From Methanothrix soehngenii GP6 (GTDB taxonomy: Archaea; Halobacteriota; Methanosarcinia; Methanotrichales; Methanotrichaceae): a stretch of 64,000 bases of DNA. The notes under the pieces were generated by a model. That model was not told the DNA's origin and searched no databases. It saw only the letters and a program-made list of their open reading frames with translations. Positions 810 through 52,867 of this stretch are shown here, in pieces (the stretch's first letter is position 1; every line of letters starts with the position of its first letter). Position numbers and translations under genes: made by a program. The stretch spans positions 310,001 to 374,000 of the forward strand of contig NC_015416.1 of NCBI RefSeq assembly GCF_000204415.1. Direction: 5' to 3'.

Positions 810-1130
810 CATCCGCCCCCGGGGAATTGGATCATCTGGCGGATACTCAGGAAATTGCCGTGTGTCGCACAGCAGCGAAAACCGGCATCTTCTGCAGACC
901 TTATCATCACCGGCCTGGGAATGAAATCGGGATCGCCCAGCTTGAACTCGGTGATGGACAAGAGCCCCTCCGGGCACAGCACCCGGCGAAGCTACCCCAG
1001 GCAAGCGCTTCTATCCGGCACCTCACCCAGCACCGCCACCAGGAACGCAACATCGAATGATCTCAGTATTGATCGGTCTTTGAAAGATGGTGAATCCAGC
1101 GGCAAAGACTGCAAGAGCGCCCAGGATCAT
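810..1130 (-). pseudogene. Decayed SAM-dependent methyltransferase, last gene of the transport operon
   Basis: An ATG overlaps the ABC ATPase stop as ATGA (1127-1130) and opens with a hydrophobic segment, MILGALAVFAAGFTIFQRPI, as in membrane-anchored class I methyltransferases. The frame then breaks. In another frame, from about 1060 down to 830, one reads the C-terminal half of a class I methyltransferase: FDVAFLVAVLGEVPDR, then LRRVLCPEGLLSITEF, then an AEDAGFR segment. An in-frame TAG separates the first two blocks. The SAM-binding core (motif I, GxGxG) that should lie between anchor and FDVAFL is absent. An internal deletion plus frameshift plus nonsense mutation explains all of this. The family assignment rests on recognised consensus, not a search. 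Confidence 0.7.
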
Positions 1131-1906
1131 TTCAGCATTGCAACACATACTTTCCTTTTTATATCCTCTATTTCCCTTACCGCCACATTTACCCCATATA
1201 CGGAGGACATTATCTCACTGTTCACAACTGCTGCAACTTCGTCTACCGCAAGAAGTCTTCTATTGCATAATGCAGCGGCCCTGCTGCCAACTAAGAAAGC
1301 ATGATCAGGCATGTGGGTGTTCATGACAATTGATATTCCCGAAGATGCCAGTTTCTGCACTGCTTCCAGCACAAGCACCTGATTTCCAAAATCAAGGTGT
1401 GCCGTTGGCTCATCCAGCAAAAGCAAAGTTGGTTCCTGGGCAAGGGCACGGGCTATCAGAACCATCTGGCGCTGCCCGCCGCTGAGACTGCCAAGCGTTC
1501 TTTCTGCAAGGTCTCCAATGCCAACCATTTCAAGCGATTCTCTGGCAATTTTCATGTCCTTTGCGCCCGGAGATGCGAATATGGAAATGTGGGGTGTACG
1601 GCCCATTACCACAAAATCCAGAACCGTAAAGGGAAAAACCACTTCATTTTGCTGAGGCACGTATCCTATGCGCCGCGCGATTTTTCCTGCCCCCAGGGAT
1701 GCTGTATTCTCTCCCATGATATGGACCGAACCTGTAGCAGGCTTGAAGATGCCTGCAATGCATTTGATGAGTGTGGATTTTCCTGATCCGTTAGGGCCGA
1801 GGATGCACATGACCTCGCCACTTCTCAGGGAAAAGGACACGTTTTCGAACACATTTTCCTTTCCGTAGGAGTAGCTGAGAGAATCAACCTCCAGGATCAG
1901 TTCCAT
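1127..1906 (-). CDS. ABC transporter ATP-binding protein, iron/cobalamin (FecE/BtuD) type
   Basis: 259 residues, typical of the FecE/BtuD class that drives metal-chelate or corrinoid import on the inner face of the membrane. Walker A GPNGSGKST is at 37-45, the Q-loop at about 85, the signature LSGGQRQ at 141-147, and Walker B LLLLDEPT at 161-168, with a switch histidine in the NTHMPDH segment. All catalytic elements are intact. Its start overlaps the permease gene by 10 bases and its stop overlaps the decayed methyltransferase by 4, so it is translationally coupled on both sides. The substrate cannot be read from the ATPase itself. Confidence 0.93.
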   Translation of the reverse strand: MELILEVDSLSYSYGKENVFENVSFSLRSGEVMCILGPNGSGKSTLIKCIAGIFKPATGSVHIMGENTASLGAGKIARRIGYVPQQNEVVFPFTVLDFVVMGRTPHISIFASPGAKDMKIARESLEMVGIGDLAERTLGSLSGGQRQMVLIARALAQEPTLLLLDEPTAHLDFGNQVLVLEAVQKLASSGISIVMNTHMPDHAFLVGSRAAALCNRRLLAVDEVAAVVNSEIMSSVYGVNVAVREIEDIKRKVCVAMLK

Positions 1907-2916
1907 CCCATGCGCCCCCTCTTTATAAGATATGCAAATATGGGAGCACCTACTAGAGAGGTTATTATGCCCAGGGGTATTTCCGTTACACTAACAGTTC
2001 TTGCCAGATCGTCTACAAGCAACATGAAAGATGCGCCGCATACCATGCTCATGGGCAGCAGGCGGTTGTAATTGGGGCCCACTATCATCCTTGAAATATG
2101 GGGCACCACCAGTCCCACCCAACCAATGACCCCGCTAATACTGACTGCCGCCGAGGTCACAAGGGTTGCACAGATAATGATTATCAAGCGCATTTTGTCC
2201 ACATTTACTCCCAGGGATCTGGCTTCCTCGTCGCCCAGTGAGAGGATATTGATGCGCCATCTGAGAAGGAACAATACAAGCATTCCAATGAACATGGGTA
2301 CAGTTATCCAGATCAGATCGCTGTACCTTATGCTGGAGAGGCTTCCCATAAGCCAGAAAACTATCTCAGGAAGTTCGTCATAAGGATCTGCGGCATATTT
2401 TGCCAGTGATATGAGGGCAGTGAAAATAGAACTCACAATTATTCCGGATAGAACAAGCACCAGAGTTCCGGTTCCCTTGCTAGCTTTATCCATGCTGATA
2501 GCAGCGAACATTGCCAGAAGTCCGAAAATAAAAGCCAGCAGCTGAATCATGATGTGGTTGTCGAATAATAGTATCCCCAGGCATGCACCAAAACCTGCGC
2601 CTGAACCCACACCCAGTATATAAGGCGATACCAATGGATTGCGAAACACACCCTGAAATGAGACACCAGCTACAGAAAGAGCGCAGCCTACGAGCATGGC
2701 TGCGAGGATCCTCGGCAATCTCACGCTGAACAATACTGTGTGATGAGTTGATGCTGGAATAGCAGTGCCAAAAAATAAAGCAGTGATAGTATTCATGATG
2801 TCATCTATTAAAACCGATACAGGTACCTGGTATCTTCCCATAAAGAGAGAAACTATGAGCATCAAGAAAGGCAATAAATACATGACAGTGGTGCCATGGT
2901 GCCTGCTATCAGGCAT
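1897..2916 (-). CDS. FecCD-family ABC transporter permease
   Basis: 339 residues with about ten hydrophobic segments from residue 12 to the end, matching the BtuC/FecCD permease fold used for iron-siderophore, haem and cobalamin uptake. Family-typical blocks are visible: RLPRILAAMLVG near 68, the PLVSPYILGVGSGAGFGA stretch near 94, and the GVIGWVGLVVPHISRM block near 262, which is the coupling region that contacts the ATPase. It overlaps the radical SAM gene upstream by 8 bases and the ATPase gene downstream by 10, which implies stoichiometric co-translation. It is the only permease in the operon, so it probably acts as a homodimer. Confidence 0.93.
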   Translation of the reverse strand: MPDSRHHGTTVMYLLPFLMLIVSLFMGRYQVPVSVLIDDIMNTITALFFGTAIPASTHHTVLFSVRLPRILAAMLVGCALSVAGVSFQGVFRNPLVSPYILGVGSGAGFGACLGILLFDNHIMIQLLAFIFGLLAMFAAISMDKASKGTGTLVLVLSGIIVSSIFTALISLAKYAADPYDELPEIVFWLMGSLSSIRYSDLIWITVPMFIGMLVLFLLRWRINILSLGDEEARSLGVNVDKMRLIIIICATLVTSAAVSISGVIGWVGLVVPHISRMIVGPNYNRLLPMSMVCGASFMLLVDDLARTVSVTEIPLGIITSLVGAPIFAYLIKRGRMGWN

Positions 2917-4681
2917 GAGTGCACTCCATCATATGCCCTGGCCACCCACTGGACGATGGCCTGTGGAAAGACCTGTTAGGGCTGGCATCCTCAAAGGACA
3001 TGCCATAAAAACGCCTGTAGAATTCATCTGCCTCCTTTTTAATGTCAATCCCAAGCTTTCCGGGATGGATTTTGTCCGCAATATAGAGAAGACCTAATAT
3101 CCAGCGAGGACTGCCGAAATCCCAGATTGGTGGTATCACATAGACCCTCTGCTCTTTTACCGCATCCGCTTCTATGCCATAATACCTGCACAGGCCATAG
3201 AACTCATCGAGCGGACGAGAGAGAAAACCGGAAATAAATATGGTTTGGGGATTATGTTCATTTATAAATGCAGGGGATACATTCACACCGGGTTTTCCTT
3301 CCCTCTGAAGCACTTTATTAATGCTCTTTCCTCCAGCAAAGGTCACAAGGTTGTTCTCCATTCTTCCTGCATTCAGGGCAAAAAGGGGTGAGCCCATACA
3401 GTAATAGACTGAATGATCGCTGTTCTCTGCCGCAAGGCTTAGAACTGATTCCATGCGCTTGCCGATAAAGGATGAAAGTTCCTCTCCCTGATGCTCTGCA
3501 CCTGCCTTTTTGGCGATCAGCCTGATAAACTCGAGATATGAGCATGGCTGTTGTATCAGGCGATGCATTTTCATAAGCGTTTCAGCGTCAGAGACCTCCC
3601 GCCAGACCTCAAGCAGTTTCCCTTCGTCAAATATTCCCATGCATATGAGCGCTGCATGTACCATACCAAAAGCCCGGCTTATCCTGTAACCACCCATGAA
3701 TCCGGCCTCACTGAAATTTTCACTGGCAGCAGTTCCCTTTACCTGGACATTATGCCCACAGCGGCAGGCATAGTCCGTCCAGGGCTTCAGAAGCCTGCAT
3801 CCCATGGGGCCGTGAAACTCCCTTTCTGCAAGCAGGCTCCCACATTGCGGACAGTAGGTATGCAATAATTCCGTGCCCGGAGAATTGAACAGATATACGT
3901 GATCCATGTGCTCGCGTATTGCCCTGCACAATCTTTCAGCATCCCCTATGGAGGGTTCCTGTTCAAGAGGTGTATCCCCGAATGGAATGAATCTCATCAG
4001 CTGTAAGGGGATCTCAGAGGAGACCTTAGATAGTGTTCTTGCAGCCTGCAAGACATCGGCTTCATTTCTCCTGGAATACACTACCGACGTCTCTACGTGT
4101 ACGCCCATTTCAAGAAGCCCGGCAATATTCCTAAAAACAGGAGTCGAGGATTTAGCACCACATGTCCTGTAAATACTATTGGAATATCCTTTGACCCCCA
4201 CGTTCACGAAATCTATCAGACCTCCAAGCTCTTCAAGCGTCTCTTCAGTGAAATAGCAATTTGTAGAGCAGCCAACAAGCAGGCTATTCTCCTTTGCCTG
4301 AACTGCAAGCTCCCTGAAAATGTAATAGTTGGCAGCCGGTTCATTAAGTGTCGAAACCACGCCCTGGCATTCCTGCTCCAGTGCTTTTGCGACTACCTGG
4401 GTTGGGCTGAGCGTTGGCCAGCCAAAAGACCGGTTGGATGCCAGCAATCTTGCCACACATCCCTGGCATTCAAAATTGCAGCCGGTACTGAAAACCTGCA
4501 GGAACTTTGCCGAGGGATGAAAATGCAGCATTGGTATGGTTTCCACAGAAATGGGATAGCCACCCATGTAGCCAATTTCAGGAGATTGAATTATGCTGCC
4601 GCCTTTCTTCACATAAGTCCCGCATCTACCTCTGCTATGCTCGTTGATCTCACAACCGATCTCGCATACTTTGCACTGCAT
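2909..4681 (-). CDS. Radical SAM enzyme fused to a substrate-binding-protein-like domain
   Basis: 590 residues. A cysteine cluster at the N-terminus (C3, C6, C10, C20) resembles that of PflA-like and AmmeMemo-type radical SAM proteins. The radical SAM motif CxxxCxxC is C68-C72-C75. A further group of cysteines (CPQCG near 285, CRCG near 315) could bind another Fe-S cluster or zinc. From about residue 430 the sequence changes to a TroA/FepB-like helical-backbone binding fold (a FAGG block near 440, then TIFISG, RVYVIPP and KLGIDIKKEADEFYRRFYG). That fold resembles the operon's own binding protein but has no signal peptide, so it should be cytosolic. Neighbours point to processing of an imported metal, corrinoid or metallophore. 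The reaction is unknown; the two-domain fusion is the notable point. Confidence 0.8.
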   Translation of the reverse strand: MQCKVCEIGCEINEHSRGRCGTYVKKGGSIIQSPEIGYMGGYPISVETIPMLHFHPSAKFLQVFSTGCNFECQGCVARLLASNRSFGWPTLSPTQVVAKALEQECQGVVSTLNEPAANYYIFRELAVQAKENSLLVGCSTNCYFTEETLEELGGLIDFVNVGVKGYSNSIYRTCGAKSSTPVFRNIAGLLEMGVHVETSVVYSRRNEADVLQAARTLSKVSSEIPLQLMRFIPFGDTPLEQEPSIGDAERLCRAIREHMDHVYLFNSPGTELLHTYCPQCGSLLAEREFHGPMGCRLLKPWTDYACRCGHNVQVKGTAASENFSEAGFMGGYRISRAFGMVHAALICMGIFDEGKLLEVWREVSDAETLMKMHRLIQQPCSYLEFIRLIAKKAGAEHQGEELSSFIGKRMESVLSLAAENSDHSVYYCMGSPLFALNAGRMENNLVTFAGGKSINKVLQREGKPGVNVSPAFINEHNPQTIFISGFLSRPLDEFYGLCRYYGIEADAVKEQRVYVIPPIWDFGSPRWILGLLYIADKIHPGKLGIDIKKEADEFYRRFYGMSFEDASPNRSFHRPSSSGWPGHMMECTHA

Positions 4682-4692
4682 TTCTGCCCCCT

Positions 4693-5310
4693 CTATTTGC
4701 TCAATACCACCCAGAACCCGGAATCATCCCGGACCGTATGGCAGACGAGGTCGGTCTGCTCTGCTGCTTCTTCTATGACCTTCTGGTTTTCCGGGCTGAG
4801 GCGTTCCTTGGAATTGTTCTGCCACTGGGGATTGATAGCGGCCATTTTTTCAGATATCTGTTCTCTCAATTCCTTGGTGCCAAAACCTCCGCCTATCCAT
4901 GCCTGCCCGCCGGGCGCAAGAACGCGGGCTATTTCATTAAAGGCAGCAGGAAGATCATTCCAGAAAAACACGGAACCACGGCTCACAATGAGATCGGCGC
5001 AGCCATTTTGGAAGGGAAGCACATGTACATCAGCAATCAAAGGAACAACCTTGTCCGCTATCCTGTGATGAAGAACTTTCTCCTGTGAAAGCCTGCACAT
5101 CTCTCTTGAGAGATCAACGCCATAGGTCCGCATTTCTGTGATCTGGGCAATGGAAATCCCCAGGGATGCTATGCCGCATCCCAGGTCCAGGCATCTGCCG
5201 CTCTTAATCCCGCTCTCTGTGACTATATGGTTTGCTATGACTGGATAAATGGGAGCAAAGATATGCTCCGCAATATAAGCAAAACCCGGGGATTTGCCAT
5301 TTTCTCTCAT
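4693..5310 (-). CDS. Class I SAM-dependent methyltransferase
   Basis: 205 residues with the seven-strand methyltransferase core: motif I LDLGCGIASLG at 41-51, an acidic post-I residue in YGVDLSREM near 67, DVHVLPF near 94, and RVLAPGGQAWIGGG near 128. It transfers a methyl group from SAM to an unknown acceptor. The start codon overlaps the stop of the binding-protein gene as ATGA, and the radical SAM gene follows after 11 bases. This places it inside the transport operon and suggests action on the same cargo or on a small molecule derived from it. It is complete, unlike the second methyltransferase at the operon's far end. Confidence 0.85.
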   Translation of the reverse strand: MRENGKSPGFAYIAEHIFAPIYPVIANHIVTESGIKSGRCLDLGCGIASLGISIAQITEMRTYGVDLSREMCRLSQEKVLHHRIADKVVPLIADVHVLPFQNGCADLIVSRGSVFFWNDLPAAFNEIARVLAPGGQAWIGGGFGTKELREQISEKMAAINPQWQNNSKERLSPENQKVIEEAAEQTDLVCHTVRDDSGFWVVLSK

Positions 5311-6395
5311 TTCGTTATCTTGGCCTCAGGATGCAATAGCATGTCAAGATCGCTATCTTCGAGAGCATAGTGGAAGAATTCCGAATAGAATTCACCGGTC
5401 AGGCTGTCTAGATCCATATCGGCAAAGAGGTCAGGATATAGCATCTTCGCAGTCCAGGCCGTTCCGATGATGAGGTGAGGGCCCTGCGGCCTATCTATCC
5501 AGCAGAACGGATTCTGCGGTGCCAGATATACTCGTTTGTTCTGTACAGCTTCGACGCTTGTCCAGATAGGATCGGAGTATACTGTTTTATAGAACTGCGG
5601 GCTGGAAGTGATTATTGCTTCTGGGTTCCAGTTCATAACCTGCTCTATGGATACCTGCGTCATGCCGTTTCCTGGAGTAAGGGGACAATCAGCAACGTTG
5701 ATGCCGCCACAGATGTCGATCACCTGGGAGTGCTGCGAACCAGATGGATCTGTCGCCAGTCCTGTGGGACCTTCGGCATAGTAAACGCGCACTTTTTCGT
5801 CCTCTGGGATATCTTTTACTGTCTCATTGATCTTTGTCAGGATTGAACTGCGGAATTCGAGCAGCTTTTCTGCCTGATCCTTGCAATCAAGCAACTTCCC
5901 CACATACTCGATGGTGGGATCGGATTTCGTAACGAAGATGATGGAGCCATCGATAGCTACAACCGGGATGCTGCCAAATTTTTCCTGCCTGCGGTTGATA
6001 GTTTCCTGGACTTCGCCGTCTGTAGTGTAACCTTCTATTACAATGTCGGGACTCATGTTAATCATAGTCTCATAATTCCCGGTTTGTGTCCCATACCAGC
6101 CTCCTATTACCGGCAGGCTCTGATAATTTTCATCCATTAAAGTATGGTTAAAATTATTTATGAAATTCCAGCCTGCAAGTTTGTCGGGTGCGAGCATGTA
6201 TACAAGAATTGTGGACGGGGGAGACGTAGAGATAACAGAGCTAATGTTTTCAGGAACGGTTAATTGCCTGCCCAACATGTCGGTGATCTGTACGGTGCCT
6301 GATGCCTGTTGAATTTCTTGTGCCATGCATTCACAGGCATTCATAGCCAGGAATAGCATAAAAATCAGAACAATTATGCTCCTTTTTTCATTCAA
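5307..6395 (-). CDS. ABC transporter substrate-binding protein, iron/cobalamin type
   Basis: 362 residues. A hydrophobic signal segment (IIVLIFMLFLAM, residues 7-18) ends in a cysteine-containing stretch, so the protein is exported and possibly lipid-anchored. The mature part is a TroA/BtuF-type fold: an ITDMLGRQLTVPENI opening near 37, MSPDIVIEG near 114, a second-lobe GGINVADC near 230, and the closing block WNPEAIITSSPQFY near 253. It is the first gene of the operon and delivers the ligand to the FecCD permease. The ligand may be an iron chelate, a corrinoid or another metal complex; sequence alone does not decide. A TATA element lies about 35-45 bases upstream. Confidence 0.9.
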   Translation of the reverse strand: MNEKRSIIVLIFMLFLAMNACECMAQEIQQASGTVQITDMLGRQLTVPENISSVISTSPPSTILVYMLAPDKLAGWNFINNFNHTLMDENYQSLPVIGGWYGTQTGNYETMINMSPDIVIEGYTTDGEVQETINRRQEKFGSIPVVAIDGSIIFVTKSDPTIEYVGKLLDCKDQAEKLLEFRSSILTKINETVKDIPEDEKVRVYYAEGPTGLATDPSGSQHSQVIDICGGINVADCPLTPGNGMTQVSIEQVMNWNPEAIITSSPQFYKTVYSDPIWTSVEAVQNKRVYLAPQNPFCWIDRPQGPHLIIGTAWTAKMLYPDLFADMDLDSLTGEFYSEFFHYALEDSDLDMLLHPEAKITK

Positions 6396-6440: not shown

Positions 6441-6576
6441 AGTTGAGCTAAAATATGGCTCTTGGCCAGACTTTTCTTAAATTTATGAATCAAACTGCCC
6501 ACTGCCACCCTGCCCTAAAAATACCTGTATTTTTAGAAAAAATTCGATAAATGGAACCCCGTTGCTCGGCCCGAGA

Positions 6577-7488
6577 TCACCTCTCTTTTCTATATGGAAT
6601 CTGGATCTCAGTCAACAGCTCCTCCTCTGCCGTCTTGCAGGGATCACTAAGGTACAGCTCCCGGATCGGTCCGGCTACTTCCAGACCGGCCCCGGCCATG
6701 TACTTGAAGACGGACTGGTAGGACTTGTGCAGGGTAGGATAGCTGCCCTTGTGGATCATCGAAAGCATTCTGGCAGCCGGCAGGCTCTTGACCTCGATTC
6801 CTGAACCTTCACCCTCCACTTTTCCCGCAATGGGAAGGGCGACCTCGATGCTGACCTCCTTCTCCGACCAATCGGAGATAGCCTCGGCCTCAACGCTGAC
6901 ATGCTCGTCTCCTCTTTCTCTATCATTCTCATTCCCTTTCGCACAGTCCTCATGGTAGATGGCGATGACTGGACCGATAACCTTCAACTGATTTCTCTTG
7001 CTGGCTGGGAGATCGACAAAAGAGAATAGCTCTCCGATCAGCTTTTCGATGGTTGGGCTGAGAATTCCCGTCTCCTTCCGGCAGATGACTCGCAGTGCCG
7101 GTACATCTTTTACCGCAGGCTCTGTTAATGCCATTCCTATCAACTCCGTTCGTTCCTCTTTCAGCAAGGCCTCGATCCTCTTCAGCCGCAAGATCTCCAA
7201 CCGGACGGCAGAGAGCCGTCCCTCCATGAGACTATCAACAGTATCCCAATCGCCGCAAGCCTCGGCTTGCAGGTATGTCTTCAAGTCCTCAAGTGAGAAG
7301 CCTAGGCTGCAGATGGCTTTGATCTTCACCCCCAGTTCCATCTGGGAGGATGTGTAGTACCTATAGCCGGTGAAGGGATCCCTTGCCTCCGGTACCAGGA
7401 TTTCCAATCGGTCGTAGTAACGCAGCGCCCTCTGGGATATCCTGGTGATGGCTGAGAACCTGGCTATCGGTATTCGATCGGCTGGCAT
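6577..7488 (-). CDS. MerR-family regulator with GyrI-like effector domain
   Basis: 304 residues from the ATG at 7488. The N-terminus is a MerR winged helix (IPIARFSAITRISQRALRYY, then RDPFTGYRYYTSSQM), followed by a dimerisation helix to about residue 130. The C-terminal part (IEVKSLPAARMLSMIHKGSYPTLHKSY and on to TEIQIPYRK) is a GyrI/BmrR-type small-molecule-binding domain. The open frame extends 32 codons further upstream, but an A+T-rich TATA element sits about 30 bases before 7488, so I prefer the internal ATG and a leaderless mRNA. Such regulators sense drugs or other hydrophobic compounds; the inducer here is unknown. The neighbouring genes on both sides lie on separate transcripts. Confidence 0.85.
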   Translation of the reverse strand: MPADRIPIARFSAITRISQRALRYYDRLEILVPEARDPFTGYRYYTSSQMELGVKIKAICSLGFSLEDLKTYLQAEACGDWDTVDSLMEGRLSAVRLEILRLKRIEALLKEERTELIGMALTEPAVKDVPALRVICRKETGILSPTIEKLIGELFSFVDLPASKRNQLKVIGPVIAIYHEDCAKGNENDRERGDEHVSVEAEAISDWSEKEVSIEVALPIAGKVEGEGSGIEVKSLPAARMLSMIHKGSYPTLHKSYQSVFKYMAGAGLEVAGPIRELYLSDPCKTAEEELLTEIQIPYRKER

Positions 7489-7512
7489 TGCTGATTGATA
7501 TGGTCCCACCGG

Positions 7513-7523
7513 TAAATAAATAG
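7513..7523 (-). promoter_or_regulatory. TATA element deciding the MerR gene start
   Basis: The minus strand reads CTATTTATTTA, centred about 30 bases before the ATG at 7488. This spacing is what a leaderless archaeal transcript shows and argues against the longer upstream start. Confidence 0.5.
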
Positions 7524-7651
7524 GCTGGCAGTCTGCCCCGGCAGAAGGTTTGAAATGAACCCGTCTGCATAGAGACGAAAGCAATGGCCTTAAAGCGTTT
7601 GCCCGCTCAGCAGATCCAATCGGATGGCTGCTACAGCTCGAAGGCAGCGAT

Positions 7652-47944: not shown

Positions 47945-48499
47945 ATGCTCAACATTCTGCAGCTATCTGAGAGCCAGATCTACGTAGAGAGCGAGCGCTG
48001 GCAGTGCAGCTTCGGCCATGGAAGGCCCGTCAAGCTTGGCCTGGTACTGGAGGCTGTAGACCTTGATGAAGAGGATGATAACGGCTTTTCAATCGTCATC
48101 GATGCCAGCCTGCTGCCCCAGCTGGAGTGCCTGGACGGGGAGATATTGGAGGAGGCGAGGGCCGAGGGCCTGGAGGCGAAAGAGGAGCAGATACTCTATG
48201 CCTACGAGTCTTATGGTGGAGTGCCGGTGAACATAGATGCTGTCCAGCCTCCCAAGGCCTCATGCGGATTCTCCAGCTTCGTGGCGGACAGCACGATCAG
48301 GAGCACGGAGATAGCCGGCACGGGCGAGTCGATGGAGACCCGCCATTTTCAGAATGTGGATGAGGCTATGTCCTTTGCTCGCGACTTCTATGCGGTTTAT
48401 GCTCCTGTCATCTTTGGATTCATCGATATGGTGCTCGACCATCCCCTCCGATCGGGAGGCACGGGCTGGGACAGAATCAGCCGGATGGCGAGAAGATAG
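47945..48499 (+). CDS. Hypothetical protein
   Basis: 184 residues, acidic, no signal peptide or membrane segment. Recognisable only as an alpha/beta protein: GRPVKLGLVLEAVDLDEEDD near 25, a helix after VVEAMSFARDFYAVYAPVIF-like segment near 140. A TATA-like TCTATAAATG lies about 30 bases before the ATG, with a further A+T-rich stretch right before the start, so transcription may be leaderless. I do not recognise a family. It converges with the large NTPase gene. Confidence 0.65.
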   Translation: MLNILQLSESQIYVESERWQCSFGHGRPVKLGLVLEAVDLDEEDDNGFSIVIDASLLPQLECLDGEILEEARAEGLEAKEEQILYAYESYGGVPVNIDAVQPPKASCGFSSFVADSTIRSTEIAGTGESMETRHFQNVDEAMSFARDFYAVYAPVIFGFIDMVLDHPLRSGGTGWDRISRMARR

Positions 48500-48601
48500 G
48501 GAGCGGAAAACAGAGGATGATTTTGCTATCATGGAGGCTAATGCCGTAAGGCATATTATAAGAGATAGCAGAAATAAACAATGTTTTCCTATATCATGTA
48601 G

Positions 48602-51600
48602 CTACCTTAGGGATGTATTTATAACAAATATTTTCATATTAATATCATTTTGAGATAACTTGGCCGCTTGTGCATTAAGCAGTTTCATCAATTCATCAAT
48701 ATTTAACTTTGAAGCTTTCTTCCTATAATCTTTGTTATCCCATTGATCGCAATTGAACCAACCCACGAGATAAAGACCATTGTTACAATCGCTATCTTTT
48801 AAGTATCTATCAGCAAGTTGAGTATCCATAGCCATATCCAGCTCTGGATTCCAGCAACCTTTTACTTCAATAACAGCTTTGATTGCATCATACTTCTCGC
48901 GACCCTGTCCGGGAATTATAGCATCTACATGAATATCAGTTCGCTCCCCTGGTGTTGAGCCTACACCTCGGCGGATTTCGACTTCACGATTAACTATAAT
49001 ACTTCTTTGATTAAGATCTATTTCAAAGTGACTTTTTACGTAATCAGACAGCCTATTTTCATCCCTTGGCCTATATGTCTTAGATTCCCATGAATAGTCC
49101 CATAAATCAATTGCACGTGATGTATGTCCTTGAAGTTTCGATTCTAAACGCCCAAGTGATTCTATTAATACATCTAGAAGCTGGTCTCCGTTTTGAACTA
49201 AATGCGCTTGTTGGCTATGCCCCAAAGCAATAATGTCAGATGGATTCAACTCCCTCCATGTTTTTTGCCGAAATATGATCTGTGCCTCATATAAAGTCCA
49301 TTTTAACCAATCCAGTTCAGGTAATTCCTTGGCAATCCGTTTGATAGCATCGCATGCTTCTTGAGTGCCTTTCTGTTTCAATCGATTTAATATTGAATCT
49401 CTAAAACTTGCGATATCATCCCTTGGTCCAGGAGTAAAAACCATATCATGAGTTATATCTTCCTTATGAGGATAACTACATGCGAGCCATATAAATAAAT
49501 CTGCTAACTGATCTTCCCTTAGGCTTAACTTCATGGTTTTTTGTATACCATAATAATTATGCGATGCTGAAACGATAACTTCTTTGCCGAACTCTGAATC
49601 ATGTTGAATAGCAGGCCACACTGAGCTCCAACCAGCATCTTCTGCATGGTTGATTAGAACACTGGCAGCAATAACTGCTTTGTGTCGCCAATCTCCTTTC
49701 AGCGAATCGTATGAGGAGATAAGAGATTCGGCAAAATCCTTAGCCTCTTTAACGTTATGATCAAGAAGTTCGGCAAGCAATTTGCCCATGAATGCAGGCT
49801 TCAATTCTTCTTCCATTGCCTTTTTTAACATGCTAGCTGAAAGTTGATCATCCCAGCAATCTTCAATTCGAGAAGTTATAAAAATATTTCCAAATTTTTG
49901 GTTTTCATCATCAATAAGGGACATTAACGTTTGGATGATCTCTTTTTTAGCATGTTGATATGCAGTCTTGACTAATTTCTGCTGAATAATTTCGTTTTTC
50001 TCGTTTCCACTGAAGCCTACAGGTAGTGGAAAAGCTATGATAATTGGCGCCCAATTCTTCCATATCCCATGTGGGATACTTGAGATTTCATAGGGTGCTT
50101 CCTGGTATAATAACTGTAAGGCCCTATATCCTGCAAGTGCTGGATGATGATAAACGTCCTGACCTAGCCACTTAGAGGTTTCTGCATTATGCTCTAATAT
50201 ATACTTCTTTGCCGCATTTATTATTCTGGCTTTAGTTTTAGCATCGGCTGACTTCCATCCCGGAAGAATGGTTAAATCTGGTTCGTGGAAGTCTCCATAA
50301 CAAACACTATCTGGTTCAAGGGAAAGTTGTAGATTTAGGTCCCACCAAGCATTGTGATCGCCAGATTCAAATTTATCCAAAAGTGTTGCAATACGTTTAA
50401 TGGGAGGGGGTTCTAATAAATGTTTTTCATCTTTTTTAGCTTGATATTTTTGTTGTCTTTGATATATTTCTCTTAATTTATCTGCTTCGGCAGATTTTAA
50501 ACCAATTGGTCTTGTATACTCTTTAAATTCCTCAGATAACTCGATACCGGACTCTTGGGCTAAAAGAATAGATTCTATCTGCATGGCATCATTTATATTA
50601 AATATATATCTGACTGCCCTTGCCCAGCGTTTTTTCATTTCAGGGCACTCAGATGGTGTAATGTGATTAATGGCCCAATCAAAATCTTTATCTAAAATTA
50701 GTGGTGGATTTGAACAAGCCATATCGCCAATAGAATCAACATCAGAAAATAAAGGCAGCATCATCTCAAAAAGATGTCTACGTTTTTCGTCATCTTTGCT
50801 AATAGCATCTTCGAACTCTGAGTTTCTTTTATAGCTTAGATAGAATCCATTTTCTTCATTTAGCCGGGAAAGTAGGATTATCGCGAAATCGCTAAGTATT
50901 ACTGGGTCATCCAAGCAATCCCATGCTTTCAACATTATATTATCTACTAGATCGGTAAAACAATCTATGTGACCAAATTTCTTTTTCCGGCTCTTAATCC
51001 AATTTAATGCGGTAGGTAAATCTGATTGTTTGAGATTTTTTGCAAGCTCATACTTGATAAAAATCCAATAATTTCCCAGCCAAGATGGTTTTTTAAGAGG
51101 CGTAAGAAGCGAAAATAATTCTTCTGCACTAATGTTGTCAGGCCACAATCCTCGAAGACCAATACCCTTCAATTCGTCTTCGGTATCGTCCCCGGCGTCT
51201 CCTGTGGCTAATGGCCTTAGTTTAGCTTTTGTCTCATTATCTCCAACAACGCATAATGCATGAGCGGCTATTGCTCTGATATGCATCAATTGTGTCTGAT
51301 CAAGGGCTATATTTGCTAATGCGTCTTGAAGCGGTTGTAACCTGCAGGCTTCTGCTATAGAGATGGCAACTCGTCTAACGATTTCCCCCTTGGTTTTATT
51401 GCTGATATAGGGTTTAAGCTGTTCCTCAAGATTGGAGTGGGATAGCTTTCCATACATTCTTCGAATATCCCAATCTAAATCTAACAAAGTCTCTTCTTCA
51501 TATTTTCTGAGCAATGAATTAACCAAAGAAGCCCGATCGGATTCCTTCATTATCTCTAATTCACTTCGGAGCAATATCTCTGGATCAACATCCATAATTC

Positions 51601-52867
51601 TCTTAAAAACCTCGGGTGCACTGTTTGATATCCATACTGCGACTCCATGGAACTGAGGTGTTAACCTGCCTCGGGAATCAAAGGGATGGACTAATAAGCT
51701 CATTATTTGATCTGTCTTCATCTTGTTTTGAATAAGATATCTAGCAGCAAGGAACTCAGCAAAAGTTTGATGGGCCCAACCCATTCGATCAGGTCCACGA
51801 GAAGAAAATAGCCCTGTCGCTCTAATCGTTTCTTTTATTACATCGTCATTGATTTGAAAATTATCTCCATTAACATTCTCGCATCCACCACATAGATCTT
51901 GTATTGTCACATATTCACTTGGAACATTGCCTTGATCAACATCGGTCCAAATGGTATATCGCTTAGTAAATGTTGTAACAGCAGCTATTCGAGCGGCTGC
52001 AGCCATTCGTTGAGAGGCGGTAAAGTAGCCTGTGAGCCCTGTTTCACGACGCTTCCTATCTGTCTCTTCACAAAGCAGGTTGCATCCTTTGATATAAAGC
52101 TCAACTTGGTTTTGTGGCAAAGAATGAGTAGCTAGATAAATATTTATCAACAGATTAAGTGTGACTGGTTTAATAGCAAGTGCAACAACATTCTTCTGAT
52201 TAATTTCCTCTAAAAATTCATTCACGTTAAATTCATTTGCTCTTGCTGCTTCAATAACATCCTTTTTACGCAATGGCACCAATTCATAGATTCCTATAGG
52301 TCTATCATTCCATAGTTGTCTTAGCTCCTTTTCAAAGCTAATAGGCCACATGCCGGTGCGACAAGCGATATAGAGCTTAAGTCGTTGAGTTGGACGCTTT
52401 TTTAATTCATCAATCAACAGCGAAGTAATCGTATCAACTCGTAATATACCTTCATCTAAATTATCCAAAAATATATGAAGCTTATTATCGCCCTTCTGCC
52501 AGGATGCAAAAGTCTCATTTTCAAATAGGTCGCGAATCAACTTATCTTCGCTTCCAGATCTTCCAAGATCTAGCCAAAGAGTTCGATCCCCCTCATCGGA
52601 TTTGCCTTCGATGACTTTCTTTGCTCCCTTCATGGCATGTGTTTTGCCAATTCCAGGTTCGCCTAATATAATTACGCAGGGAAAGTCGGCCAGTGCTTCA
52701 AAATGTACTACTTCGGGATTATACACCTTCCCCCACTCAGACTCAGGATCGTATAAGTATCCGCCGTCAGATAAACTAATGTTGCCTTCTCTAGGACAAA
52801 AAAATCGTTCCCAGTTGTAGACTAGATCCCTCCTTCCATAAGCACTAAGGCCCTCCATGGCAGCCAC
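48602..52867 (-). CDS. Large STAND/NACHT-like NTPase with C-terminal PD-(D/E)XK-type nuclease domain
   Basis: 1421 residues. The P-loop module is at the N-terminus: Walker A GEPGIGKT at 69-76, Walker B LHIFLDNLDEG at 130-140, then ACRTGMW near 185 (sensor-like) and a winged-helix/ARC-type region ending with MGWAHQTFAEFLAARYL near 390, a standard NACHT/NB-ARC boundary. Residues 400-1290 are helical repeats, typical of a ligand-sensing scaffold. The last 110 residues contain ERTDIHVDAIIPG near 1308-1320 and KAVIEVKGCW near 1330, giving D...ExK of a restriction-type nuclease. The usual Avs proteins carry their effector at the N-terminus, so this order is different. Base composition is visibly more A+T-rich than neighbours. 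Start GTG with GGAGG upstream. Confidence 0.8.
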   Translation of the reverse strand: MAAMEGLSAYGRRDLVYNWERFFCPREGNISLSDGGYLYDPESEWGKVYNPEVVHFEALADFPCVIILGEPGIGKTHAMKGAKKVIEGKSDEGDRTLWLDLGRSGSEDKLIRDLFENETFASWQKGDNKLHIFLDNLDEGILRVDTITSLLIDELKKRPTQRLKLYIACRTGMWPISFEKELRQLWNDRPIGIYELVPLRKKDVIEAARANEFNVNEFLEEINQKNVVALAIKPVTLNLLINIYLATHSLPQNQVELYIKGCNLLCEETDRKRRETGLTGYFTASQRMAAAARIAAVTTFTKRYTIWTDVDQGNVPSEYVTIQDLCGGCENVNGDNFQINDDVIKETIRATGLFSSRGPDRMGWAHQTFAEFLAARYLIQNKMKTDQIMSLLVHPFDSRGRLTPQFHGVAVWISNSAPEVFKRIMDVDPEILLRSELEIMKESDRASLVNSLLRKYEEETLLDLDWDIRRMYGKLSHSNLEEQLKPYISNKTKGEIVRRVAISIAEACRLQPLQDALANIALDQTQLMHIRAIAAHALCVVGDNETKAKLRPLATGDAGDDTEDELKGIGLRGLWPDNISAEELFSLLTPLKKPSWLGNYWIFIKYELAKNLKQSDLPTALNWIKSRKKKFGHIDCFTDLVDNIMLKAWDCLDDPVILSDFAIILLSRLNEENGFYLSYKRNSEFEDAISKDDEKRRHLFEMMLPLFSDVDSIGDMACSNPPLILDKDFDWAINHITPSECPEMKKRWARAVRYIFNINDAMQIESILLAQESGIELSEEFKEYTRPIGLKSAEADKLREIYQRQQKYQAKKDEKHLLEPPPIKRIATLLDKFESGDHNAWWDLNLQLSLEPDSVCYGDFHEPDLTILPGWKSADAKTKARIINAAKKYILEHNAETSKWLGQDVYHHPALAGYRALQLLYQEAPYEISSIPHGIWKNWAPIIIAFPLPVGFSGNEKNEIIQQKLVKTAYQHAKKEIIQTLMSLIDDENQKFGNIFITSRIEDCWDDQLSASMLKKAMEEELKPAFMGKLLAELLDHNVKEAKDFAESLISSYDSLKGDWRHKAVIAASVLINHAEDAGWSSVWPAIQHDSEFGKEVIVSASHNYYGIQKTMKLSLREDQLADLFIWLACSYPHKEDITHDMVFTPGPRDDIASFRDSILNRLKQKGTQEACDAIKRIAKELPELDWLKWTLYEAQIIFRQKTWRELNPSDIIALGHSQQAHLVQNGDQLLDVLIESLGRLESKLQGHTSRAIDLWDYSWESKTYRPRDENRLSDYVKSHFEIDLNQRSIIVNREVEIRRGVGSTPGERTDIHVDAIIPGQGREKYDAIKAVIEVKGCWNPELDMAMDTQLADRYLKDSDCNNGLYLVGWFNCDQWDNKDYRKKASKLNIDELMKLLNAQAAKLSQNDINMKIFVINTSLR

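What the first reader, a model, noticed from the sequence alone, without database searches (positions are those of the whole stretch)
810..6395. Uptake operon with a radical SAM/binding-domain fusion and methyltransferases
Six tightly coupled genes (overlaps of 4-10 bases or gaps of 11) join a BtuF/FepB-type binding protein, permease and ATPase with a methyltransferase and a 590-residue radical SAM protein. That protein carries a cytosolic binding-protein-like domain at its C-terminus. This suggests import of a metal complex or corrinoid that is handed to a radical SAM reaction inside the cell. I know of no described pathway with this fusion.
Basis: partly seen in the sequence, partly recalled or inferred. 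Interest (0 to 1): 0.7.

Follow-up and report, generated by a model that had tools for sequence, protein, structure and literature searches.

The report
Molybdenum-linked radical SAM uptake operon
In a methanogen, an uptake operon encodes an enzyme that joins a radical-chemistry domain to half of a nutrient-binding protein; relatives in many oxygen-avoiding microbes carry molybdenum-control signals, pointing to an undescribed way of capturing or unlocking molybdenum or tungsten.

Summary
The "sixth" is a broken methyltransferase remnant. The fusion is real: AlphaFold pLDDT 90.7; residues 33-264 match PFL-activase, 334-569 a class III binding protein lacking the N-lobe sheet. It is not archaea-only: methanogens, sulfate reducers and clostridia encode it. 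It probably serves molybdenum/tungsten, not a corrinoid. In Methanosarcinaceae, 26 of 27 distinct operons have an upstream palindrome matching E. coli's modA operator at 16 of 18 positions; the same box precedes modA, fmdE and alternative nitrogenase genes. Molybdenum-cofactor riboswitches lie in 5 of 26 further loci scanned; one relative fuses ModA to the operon's binding protein; 6 of 6 second paralogues sit beside alternative nitrogenase; the nearest solved binding protein with a proven ligand is molybdate-binding MolA. The window operon itself lacks the box, and no ModE was detected in its genome. Most likely mechanism (inferred): import of a Mo/W complex that the radical SAM protein captures and opens. 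Substrate and reaction are unknown.

The parts
5307..6395 (-). secreted class III (Peripla_BP_2) substrate-binding protein, 362 aa, TTG start
   Evidence: PF01497 72 bits; the 28-row family profile A4 hits MolA 3psa at 178.8 bits, BtuF chains at 64.4 or less
4693..5310 (-). class I SAM methyltransferase, 205 aa
   Evidence: Methyltransf_11 64.1 bits; closest solved 3dlc, a putative methyltransferase, E 2.3e-47
2909..4681 (-). radical SAM / half binding-protein fusion, 590 aa
3692..4681 (-). residues 1-330 of the fusion: N-terminal Cys cluster, radical SAM barrel with C68-x3-C72-x2-C75, ribbon-like cysteines C277, C280, C306, C308
   Evidence: PF04055; C68, C72, C75, C277, C280 and C308 invariant in 58 rows, C306 nearly; VIA 3c8f Z 19.1, rmsd 2.8, 222 aligned, residues 33-264
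2966..3682 (-). residues 334-572 of the fusion: helices, then the C-lobe of a class III binding protein; N-lobe sheet absent
   Evidence: VIA 4hn9 Z 20.7, rmsd 2.5, 217 aligned; MolA 3psa Z 17.9, rmsd 3.1, 217 aligned; no strand of 3 or more residues between 298 and 422
1897..2916 (-). FecCD-type permease, 339 aa
   Evidence: PF01032 307.7 bits
1127..1906 (-). ABC ATPase, 259 aa
   Evidence: PF00005 122.6 bits
   Evidence: Pfam score just below cut-off
6515..6536 (.). perfect palindrome CTAAAAATAC-AG-GTATTTTTAG upstream of the operon; role unknown, not the ModE-type box of relatives

Best explanation
This is a molybdenum/tungsten acquisition operon of anaerobes. SHOWN by sequence: a class III binding protein, FecCD permease and ATPase, co-encoded with a methyltransferase and a radical SAM protein ending in half a class III binding protein; in relatives the operon carries Mo-control signals. 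INFERRED: the importer brings in a Mo or W (perhaps V) complex. The half binding-protein domain captures the same or a related complex inside the cell and presents it to the radical SAM centre; with the methyltransferase it alters or cleaves the organic ligand, freeing the metal for formylmethanofuran dehydrogenase, formate dehydrogenase or nitrogenase. The logic is that of anaerobic haem uptake operons, where a radical SAM enzyme opens the imported haem.
For: (1) ModE-type box CGTTATGTT-N6-AACATAACG at 2 or fewer mismatches near the start of 32 of 33 Methanosarcinaceae operon rows (26 of 27 distinct); 0 of 6,800 shuffled windows reach that. The E. coli K-12 modA operator matches it at 16 of 18 fixed positions. 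(2) Same box before modA, fmdE, modD/nadC-like and alternative nitrogenase genes; 118 forward sites against 25 for the control pattern in 18 genomes; ModE_repress-like protein in 17 of 17 of the Methanosarcinaceae genomes tested, all below the curated cut-off. (3) Moco riboswitch RF01055 in 5 of 26 loci, in L134 directly upstream of binding protein-fusion-methyltransferase. (4) ModA in one frame with the operon's binding protein in L037, behind a box. (5) modA within 15 kb of 8 of 34 fusion genes against 0 of 28 AmmeMemo-type radical SAM genes; FecCD genes near the fusion 4 of 29, far from it 3 of 97, p 0.049 (choice of genomes biased, see Tried and rejected). (6) 6 of 6 second paralogues beside alternative nitrogenase. 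(7) MolA is the nearest solved binding protein with a proven ligand (PMC4031551, passages). (8) TonB-dependent-receptor-type genes in 7 of the 63 loci L074-L136 (three scanned with Pfam, four by cluster), implying a bulky cargo.
Against: The window operon has no such box (best 8 mismatches); the two modA loci of its genome have none either (7-8 mismatches); no ModE match in that genome, so Mo control is not shown for this copy. L069 also lacks the box, and in two genomes (G137, G053) total sites do not exceed the control. No ligand or reaction is shown. A transporter is not always beside the fusion (36 of 60 outside Methanosarcinaceae). At FecCD level the modA link is weak (p 0.049). Iron-binding YiuA scores close behind MolA (139.7 against 178.8 bits), and two closer solved proteins (4pag, 4ovk) have no ligand that I know. 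The C-lobe has fewer invariant columns than the barrel (6 of 153 against 22 of 206). DUF364 neighbours also fit iron or vanadium (PMC2954201, passages).
Confidence: 0.5

Rival explanations
1. The methyltransferase and the radical SAM protein MAKE a small Mo/W chelator (a molybdophore); the half binding-protein domain holds substrate or product, and the importer retrieves the loaded chelator.
For: Methyltransferase and fusion are the tightest pair: within 300 bases in 15 of 17 Methanosarcinaceae and 40 of 60 other loci; TonB receptors, DUF364 and a second O-methyltransferase recur, as in a biosynthetic cluster; the DUF364 structure paper proposed chelator synthesis (PMC2954201, passages).
Against: I saw no exporter among the recurrent neighbour clusters that I scanned, but not all neighbours were scanned; a binding-protein half suggests recognition of what the importer brings.
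Confidence: 0.25
2. NifB-like role: the fusion assembles or loads a metal-containing cofactor or cluster from imported Mo/W/V, with the half domain as a scaffold.
For: NifB among the fold matches (Z 16.9); second paralogues next to alternative nitrogenase; NifDKH-like genes in the Desulfosporosinus operon L127.
Against: PFL-activase matches better, and other radical SAM folds score about 14-16; 12 of 30 fusion-bearing Methanosarcinia genomes have no nitrogenase alpha match at E 1e-80 (some are incomplete assemblies).
Confidence: 0.08
3. The cargo is not a Mo/W species but an iron, haem or corrinoid complex; the Mo control reflects demand of Mo-starved cells for that other nutrient (for example iron for Fe-only nitrogenase).
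For: FecCD/BtuC-like permease; iron-binding YiuA is a near relative of the binding protein; BtuB-like match, far below cut-off, of the TonB-type protein in L129 (62.2 of 599.7 bits).
Against: The operon is boxed in Methanohalophilus too, where no nitrogenase alpha was matched; Moco riboswitches, none listed for cobalamin; ModA fusion.
Confidence: 0.1
4. The half binding-protein domain is a sensor or structural leftover; the radical SAM domain modifies a protein or tRNA in response to imported metal.
For: Related radical SAM proteins without the domain (c22) stand in similar operons; the C-lobe has only 6 of 153 invariant columns.
Against: By mean majority fraction the C-lobe is as conserved as the barrel (0.64 against 0.62 over 58 rows).
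Confidence: 0.07

Closest known systems
MolBC-A molybdate/tungstate importer (H. influenzae HI1470-1472)
   Same: class III binding protein with FecCD-type permease; MolA is the nearest solved relative with a proven ligand (PMC4031551, passages)
   Different: MolBC-A has no radical SAM enzyme or methyltransferase partner as far as I recall; binding of Mo/W by the proteins here is untested
HmuW-type anaerobic haem degradation operon (F. nucleatum; PMC10404700, abstract)
   Same: a radical SAM enzyme encoded with uptake machinery opens the imported metal chelate and frees the metal; it is the working analogy
   Different: HmuW is a class C radical SAM methyltransferase; here a PFL-activase/AmmeMemo-type barrel with half a binding protein and a separate methyltransferase
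AmmeMemoRadiSam radical SAM enzyme (TIGR04337)
   Same: aligns over residues 1-313
   Different: 89.6 bits against a cut-off of 220; extra 250-residue binding-protein half; FecCD within 15 kb of 26 of 34 fusion genes against 1 of 28 AmmeMemo-type genes
DUF364/FmdE/FecCD heavy-metal clusters (PMC2954201, passages)
   Same: same neighbourhood types; iron, W, V and Mo contexts listed there
   Different: a search of its main text for 'radical' gave 0 hits
NifB
   Same: radical SAM enzyme of metal-cluster assembly (recalled); fold similar (Z 16.9)
   Different: different C-terminal part; no nitrogenase alpha match in 12 of 30 fusion-bearing Methanosarcinia genomes

Membership tests
MolBC-A type molybdate/tungstate importer | class III binding protein with FecCD permease and ATPase | tested here: met
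MolBC-A type molybdate/tungstate importer | binds molybdate or tungstate | not testable with these tools
   no ligand assay; MolA is only the nearest relative with known ligand (178.8 bits)
ModE regulon | ModE-type operator upstream, in relatives | tested here: met
   26 of 27 distinct Methanosarcinaceae operons; E. coli modA operator 16 of 18
ModE regulon | ModE-type operator upstream of the window operon | tested here: not met
   best match 8 mismatches; no ModE hit in the genome
AmmeMemoRadiSam radical SAM enzyme TIGR04337 | score above curated cut-off | tested here: not met
   89.6 of 220 bits; 103.0, 109.3 and 119.9 of 220 for three relatives
BtuFCD cobalamin importer | scores above curated cut-offs of BtuF and BtuC models | tested here: not met
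   BtuF NF002894 37.6 of 234; BtuC NF007081 232 of 461
HmuW/ChuW/HutW haem-degrading radical SAM | class C (HemN-like) radical SAM family | tested here: inconclusive
   no such family listed for the fusion at E 0.001; absence from a list is not exclusion
NifB | NifB family sequence match | tested here: inconclusive
   not listed at E 0.001; fold similarity only
class III periplasmic binding protein (C-terminal domain) | C-lobe fold | tested here: met
   Z 17.9-20.7 to class III proteins, 217-227 residues aligned
class III periplasmic binding protein (C-terminal domain) | two lobes around a ligand cleft | tested here: not met
   no N-lobe strands in the model; PF01497 match starts at profile position 94 of 235

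The most novel reading that the evidence does not exclude
Anaerobes have a dedicated, undescribed radical-SAM route that makes or opens a molybdenum/tungsten metallophore: an anaerobic 'molybdophore' cycle. Its enzyme uses half of a binding protein as an intracellular receptor for the imported complex, placed against the radical centre where the missing N-lobe would be.
Probability: 0.35. Interest if true: 0.9.

Novelty: new variant of a known kind. Interest (0 to 1): 0.72.

Why it matters
Molybdenum and tungsten are scarce in sulfidic habitats, yet methanogens, sulfate reducers and syntrophs depend on them (general knowledge). How they win these metals there is open. A conserved operon with Mo-control signals (ModE-type operator, Mo-cofactor riboswitch) and a radical SAM enzyme fused to half a binding protein makes that question testable in genetically tractable Methanosarcina. 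It also gives a first metal assignment to a radical SAM family spread over methanogens, clostridia and sulfate reducers.

Tried and rejected
Corrinoid cargo: no cobalamin riboswitch listed in 35 sources; BtuF/BtuC cut-offs missed. Nitrogenase-only role: 12 of 30 fusion-bearing genomes lack a nitrogenase alpha match. Viral carriage: 1 stretch matched a pattern, none a relative; plasmids: no match at E 1e-20. Sixth gene: rejected as a remnant. A box at the window operon: none. Placing the binding-protein half against the barrel: no coordinates available to me. Ten paper searches did not show me a description of the fusion; I read listings and starts of abstracts, only open-licence papers are held, and one search was poor because 'ModE' matched the word 'mode'. 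Passages seen in PMC10390477 (0 hits for 'radical SAM') and PMC9765008 do not treat this operon. In the fold search a family not listed is not thereby excluded.

Bias to tell: the 29 genomes were 29 of 30 handles (L136 was not held) picked out of the 63 loci L074-L136, for long contigs, after I had seen modA-like neighbours in some (L090, L103, L108, L113, L122, L124), and these were all picked. The share of 8 of 34 may therefore be too high for the whole family. The 20 boxed regions were chosen by hand from the listed sites; most 3-mismatch sites were left out, and the list was cut. The 0-of-6,800 null uses simple base shuffles. Rfam was run on 26 of the 63 loci. Rows beyond the listed ones were not seen.
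Full report
WHAT IS THERE. The window lies at 310,001-374,000 of a 3.03 Mb genome whose size fits Methanothrix soehngenii GP6 (recalled, not looked up). On the minus strand five genes follow each other with overlaps of 4, 8 and 10 bases and one gap of 11: secreted binding protein, methyltransferase, radical SAM fusion, FecCD permease, ATPase. Upstream is a MerR/GyrI-like gene, 6577-7584; downstream on the other strand a shikimate kinase, 309-800.

THE FUSION. Pfam sees radical SAM (residues 64-215) in the whole protein and a sub-threshold Peripla_BP_2 match when the C-terminal part is scanned alone (16.5 bits against 27.5). A profile of 58 relatives matches solved class III binding proteins down to E 4.3e-18, all 20 listed matches starting at position 357 or later. 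AlphaFold2 gave mean pLDDT 90.7 and pTM 0.90. VIA-align: residues 338-564 to 4hn9 (Z 20.7, rmsd 2.5, 217 aligned), to YiuA chains (about Z 18) and to molybdate-binding MolA 3psa (Z 17.9, rmsd 3.1, 217 aligned); residues 33-264 to PFL-activase 3c8f (Z 19.1, rmsd 2.8, 222 aligned); NifB at Z 16.9. No strand of three or more residues lies between 298 and 422, so the N-lobe sheet is missing: it is half a binding protein. By mean majority fraction the C-lobe is as conserved as the barrel (0.64 against 0.62), but it has fewer invariant columns (6 of 153 against 22 of 206), and the helices before it are less conserved (0.48). The sequence start (MQCKVCEIGCEI) does not look like a signal peptide, so the domain should be cytosolic (inference).

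DISTRIBUTION. In 149 relatives plus the own genome, 30 of 150 carry the fusion at E below 1e-100; in the window's own family only 1 of 50 does, the window genome itself. A tree of 94 rows places the window inside a Methanosarcinaceae clade of 30 rows (SH-aLRT 100) near Methanosarcinaceae UBA470, which suggests horizontal gain. A scan of the species genomes with the C-terminal alignment gave 117 pattern matches; 110 encode a relative of that part, 80 were kept, and 73 of these 80 show a fusion frame of 560 residues or more: methanogens, Methanolliviera, sulfate reducers, clostridia, syntrophs. Viral contigs: none confirmed.

NEIGHBOURHOOD. Over 101 loci (the window included), clusters of the fusion, methyltransferase, ATPase, permease and binding protein occur in 99, 84, 75, 72 and 71 loci; the next commonest gene is in 9. 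In the 77 of 80 named loci with a frame over 400 bits against the fusion profile: Methanosarcinaceae, methyltransferase within 300 bases in 15 of 17 and the whole set within 9 kb in 16 of 17; others, methyltransferase within 300 bases in 40 of 60, within 9 kb in 47, permease in 36, binding protein in 39, all three in 27 (some contigs end early). So methyltransferase plus fusion is the core, and the importer is a frequent partner. TonB-dependent-receptor-type genes (clusters c72, c73, c175) lie in 7 of the 63 loci L074-L136: L096, L099, L103, L120, L129, L135, L136; one member of each cluster was scanned. They suggest a cargo too large for porins (inference). DUF364, FmdE, ModA, ModB, ModC/WtpC-like genes and an HTH protein with a molybdopterin-biosynthesis-like domain recur.

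MOLYBDENUM, FIVE LINES. (a) Statistics: in 29 genomes, 34 fused genes; modA over its cut-off lies within 15 kb of 8 of 34, against 0 of 28 AmmeMemo-type radical SAM genes (p 0.006). Counted by FecCD genes instead, modA is near 4 of 29 that lie by the fusion and 3 of 97 more than 40 kb from it (p 0.049). DUF364: 14 of 34 against 0 of 28; by FecCD genes 15 of 29 against 8 of 97. By genome, 7 of 29 against a mean of 0.84 and a maximum of 2 in 20,000 random draws of other FecCD genes (the choice of genomes is biased, see Tried and rejected). (b) Operator: near the start of the operon in Methanosarcinaceae sits CGTTATGTT-N6-AACATAACG: 32 of 33 Methanosarcinaceae rows at 2 or fewer mismatches, 26 of 27 after removing six double rows; exceptions are L069 and, outside the family, the window; 0 of 6,800 shuffles. 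E. coli K-12 has CGTTATATTGTCGCCTACATAACG just before modA, annotated two genes from modE, a match at 16 of 18. (c) Regulon: in 18 genomes 118 forward sites against 25 for the control, without excess in G137 (3 against 4) and G053 (2 against 2). In 20 hand-picked regions, genes behind the sites include modA in nine (two scanned: L158 216.4 and L171 107.2 bits, cut-off 62.5; the rest by similarity), fmdE in three (one scanned), modD/nadC-like genes in two (below cut-offs), FecCD or binding-protein genes in three, the anf/vnf region, an S-layer protein and one unknown; in L164 no gene start was called within 400 bases; L161 is counted twice. A ModE_repress-like protein is in 17 of 17 Methanosarcinaceae genomes tested and not matched in the window genome; none passes the curated cut-off. 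(d) Riboswitch: RF01055 in 5 of 26 loci scanned, of 63 (six copies): L134 upstream of binding protein-fusion-methyltransferase, L125 upstream of a BioB/HmdB-like gene and the fusion, L121 just after the fusion, L133 (two, before formate-dehydrogenase-like genes) and L122 7.6 kb away. No RF01055 in the eight archaeal loci or in the window. (e) Fusion and paralogy: in L037 one 691-residue frame holds ModA (SBP_bac_11, 204 bits) and the operon's binding protein behind a box. The second paralogue in six Methanosarcina-type genomes lies within about 6 kb of an alternative nitrogenase alpha gene, 6 of 6; VnfD and VnfK pass their cut-offs in L043.

WHY NOT NITROGENASE ONLY. 12 of 30 fusion-bearing Methanosarcinia genomes have no nitrogenase alpha match at E 1e-80 (some are incomplete), Methanohalophilus among them, yet its operon is boxed. 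All methanogens need Mo or W for formylmethanofuran dehydrogenase (recalled).

MECHANISM. Shown: the parts, the fold, the Mo-control signals in relatives. Inferred from MolA (molybdate- and tungstate-binding, PMC4031551, passages) and from the boxes: Mo/W cargo. Inferred by analogy with HmuW (radical SAM opening of imported haem; PMC10404700, abstract): the fusion processes the imported complex. That the barrel replaces the missing N-lobe, so that the ligand sits between C-lobe and radical centre, is a guess; I had no coordinates to test it. Synthesis of the chelator instead of its opening remains the main rival.

LIMITS. The window copy lacks the box, and no ModE was matched in its genome, so for this organism Mo control is not shown; one modA of this genome lies about 235 kb away beside nitrogenase genes. 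Ligand and reaction are untested. Ten searches of an open-licence library showed me no description of the fusion, which is not proof that none exists.

Noticed in passing
L037 5156-7231: ModA and the operon's class III binding protein in one 691-residue frame in a Methanosarcinaceae MAG: two molybdate-type receptors fused.
   Followed up: partly
L127 1435-10981: Desulfosporosinus operon: binding protein, FecCD, ATPase, methyltransferase, NifD-like and NifK-like (below their cut-offs), NifH, then the fusion; a second NifH-like gene with PII-like genes follows.
   Followed up: partly
L170 2445-3713; L047 9878-11164: An S-layer family protein (PF07752, scanned in L170) stands behind a ModE-type box, and cluster relatives directly follow the operon in several Methanosarcinaceae.
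   Followed up: partly
L125 8092-8955; L117 240-941: BioB/HmdB-like radical SAM protein (both models below cut-off in L125) with a CX5CX2C spacing near the fusion in Desulfosporosinus, behind a Moco riboswitch in L125.
   Followed up: partly
L121 13165-14166; L088, L098, L104: Radical SAM relatives (c22) without the binding-protein half stand in FecCD operons near the fusion.
   Followed up: partly
L079 1468-3345 and 3333-5060: Two convergent fusion genes side by side in Methanoculleus chikugoensis; one is very divergent (branch 1.78).
   Followed up: no
window 6515-6536: Perfect A+T-rich palindrome between the MerR/GyrI-like gene and the operon.
   Followed up: no
window 48001-52000: G+C drops to 0.41 against 0.53 before and 0.51 after.
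   Followed up: no
L155 2751-2774, L160 2966-2989, L161 4090-4113: Zero-mismatch ModE-type boxes before fmdE-like plus polyferredoxin genes in two Methanosarcina-type genomes (fmdE scanned in L155 only), hinting at Mo control of a formylmethanofuran dehydrogenase operon.
   Followed up: partly
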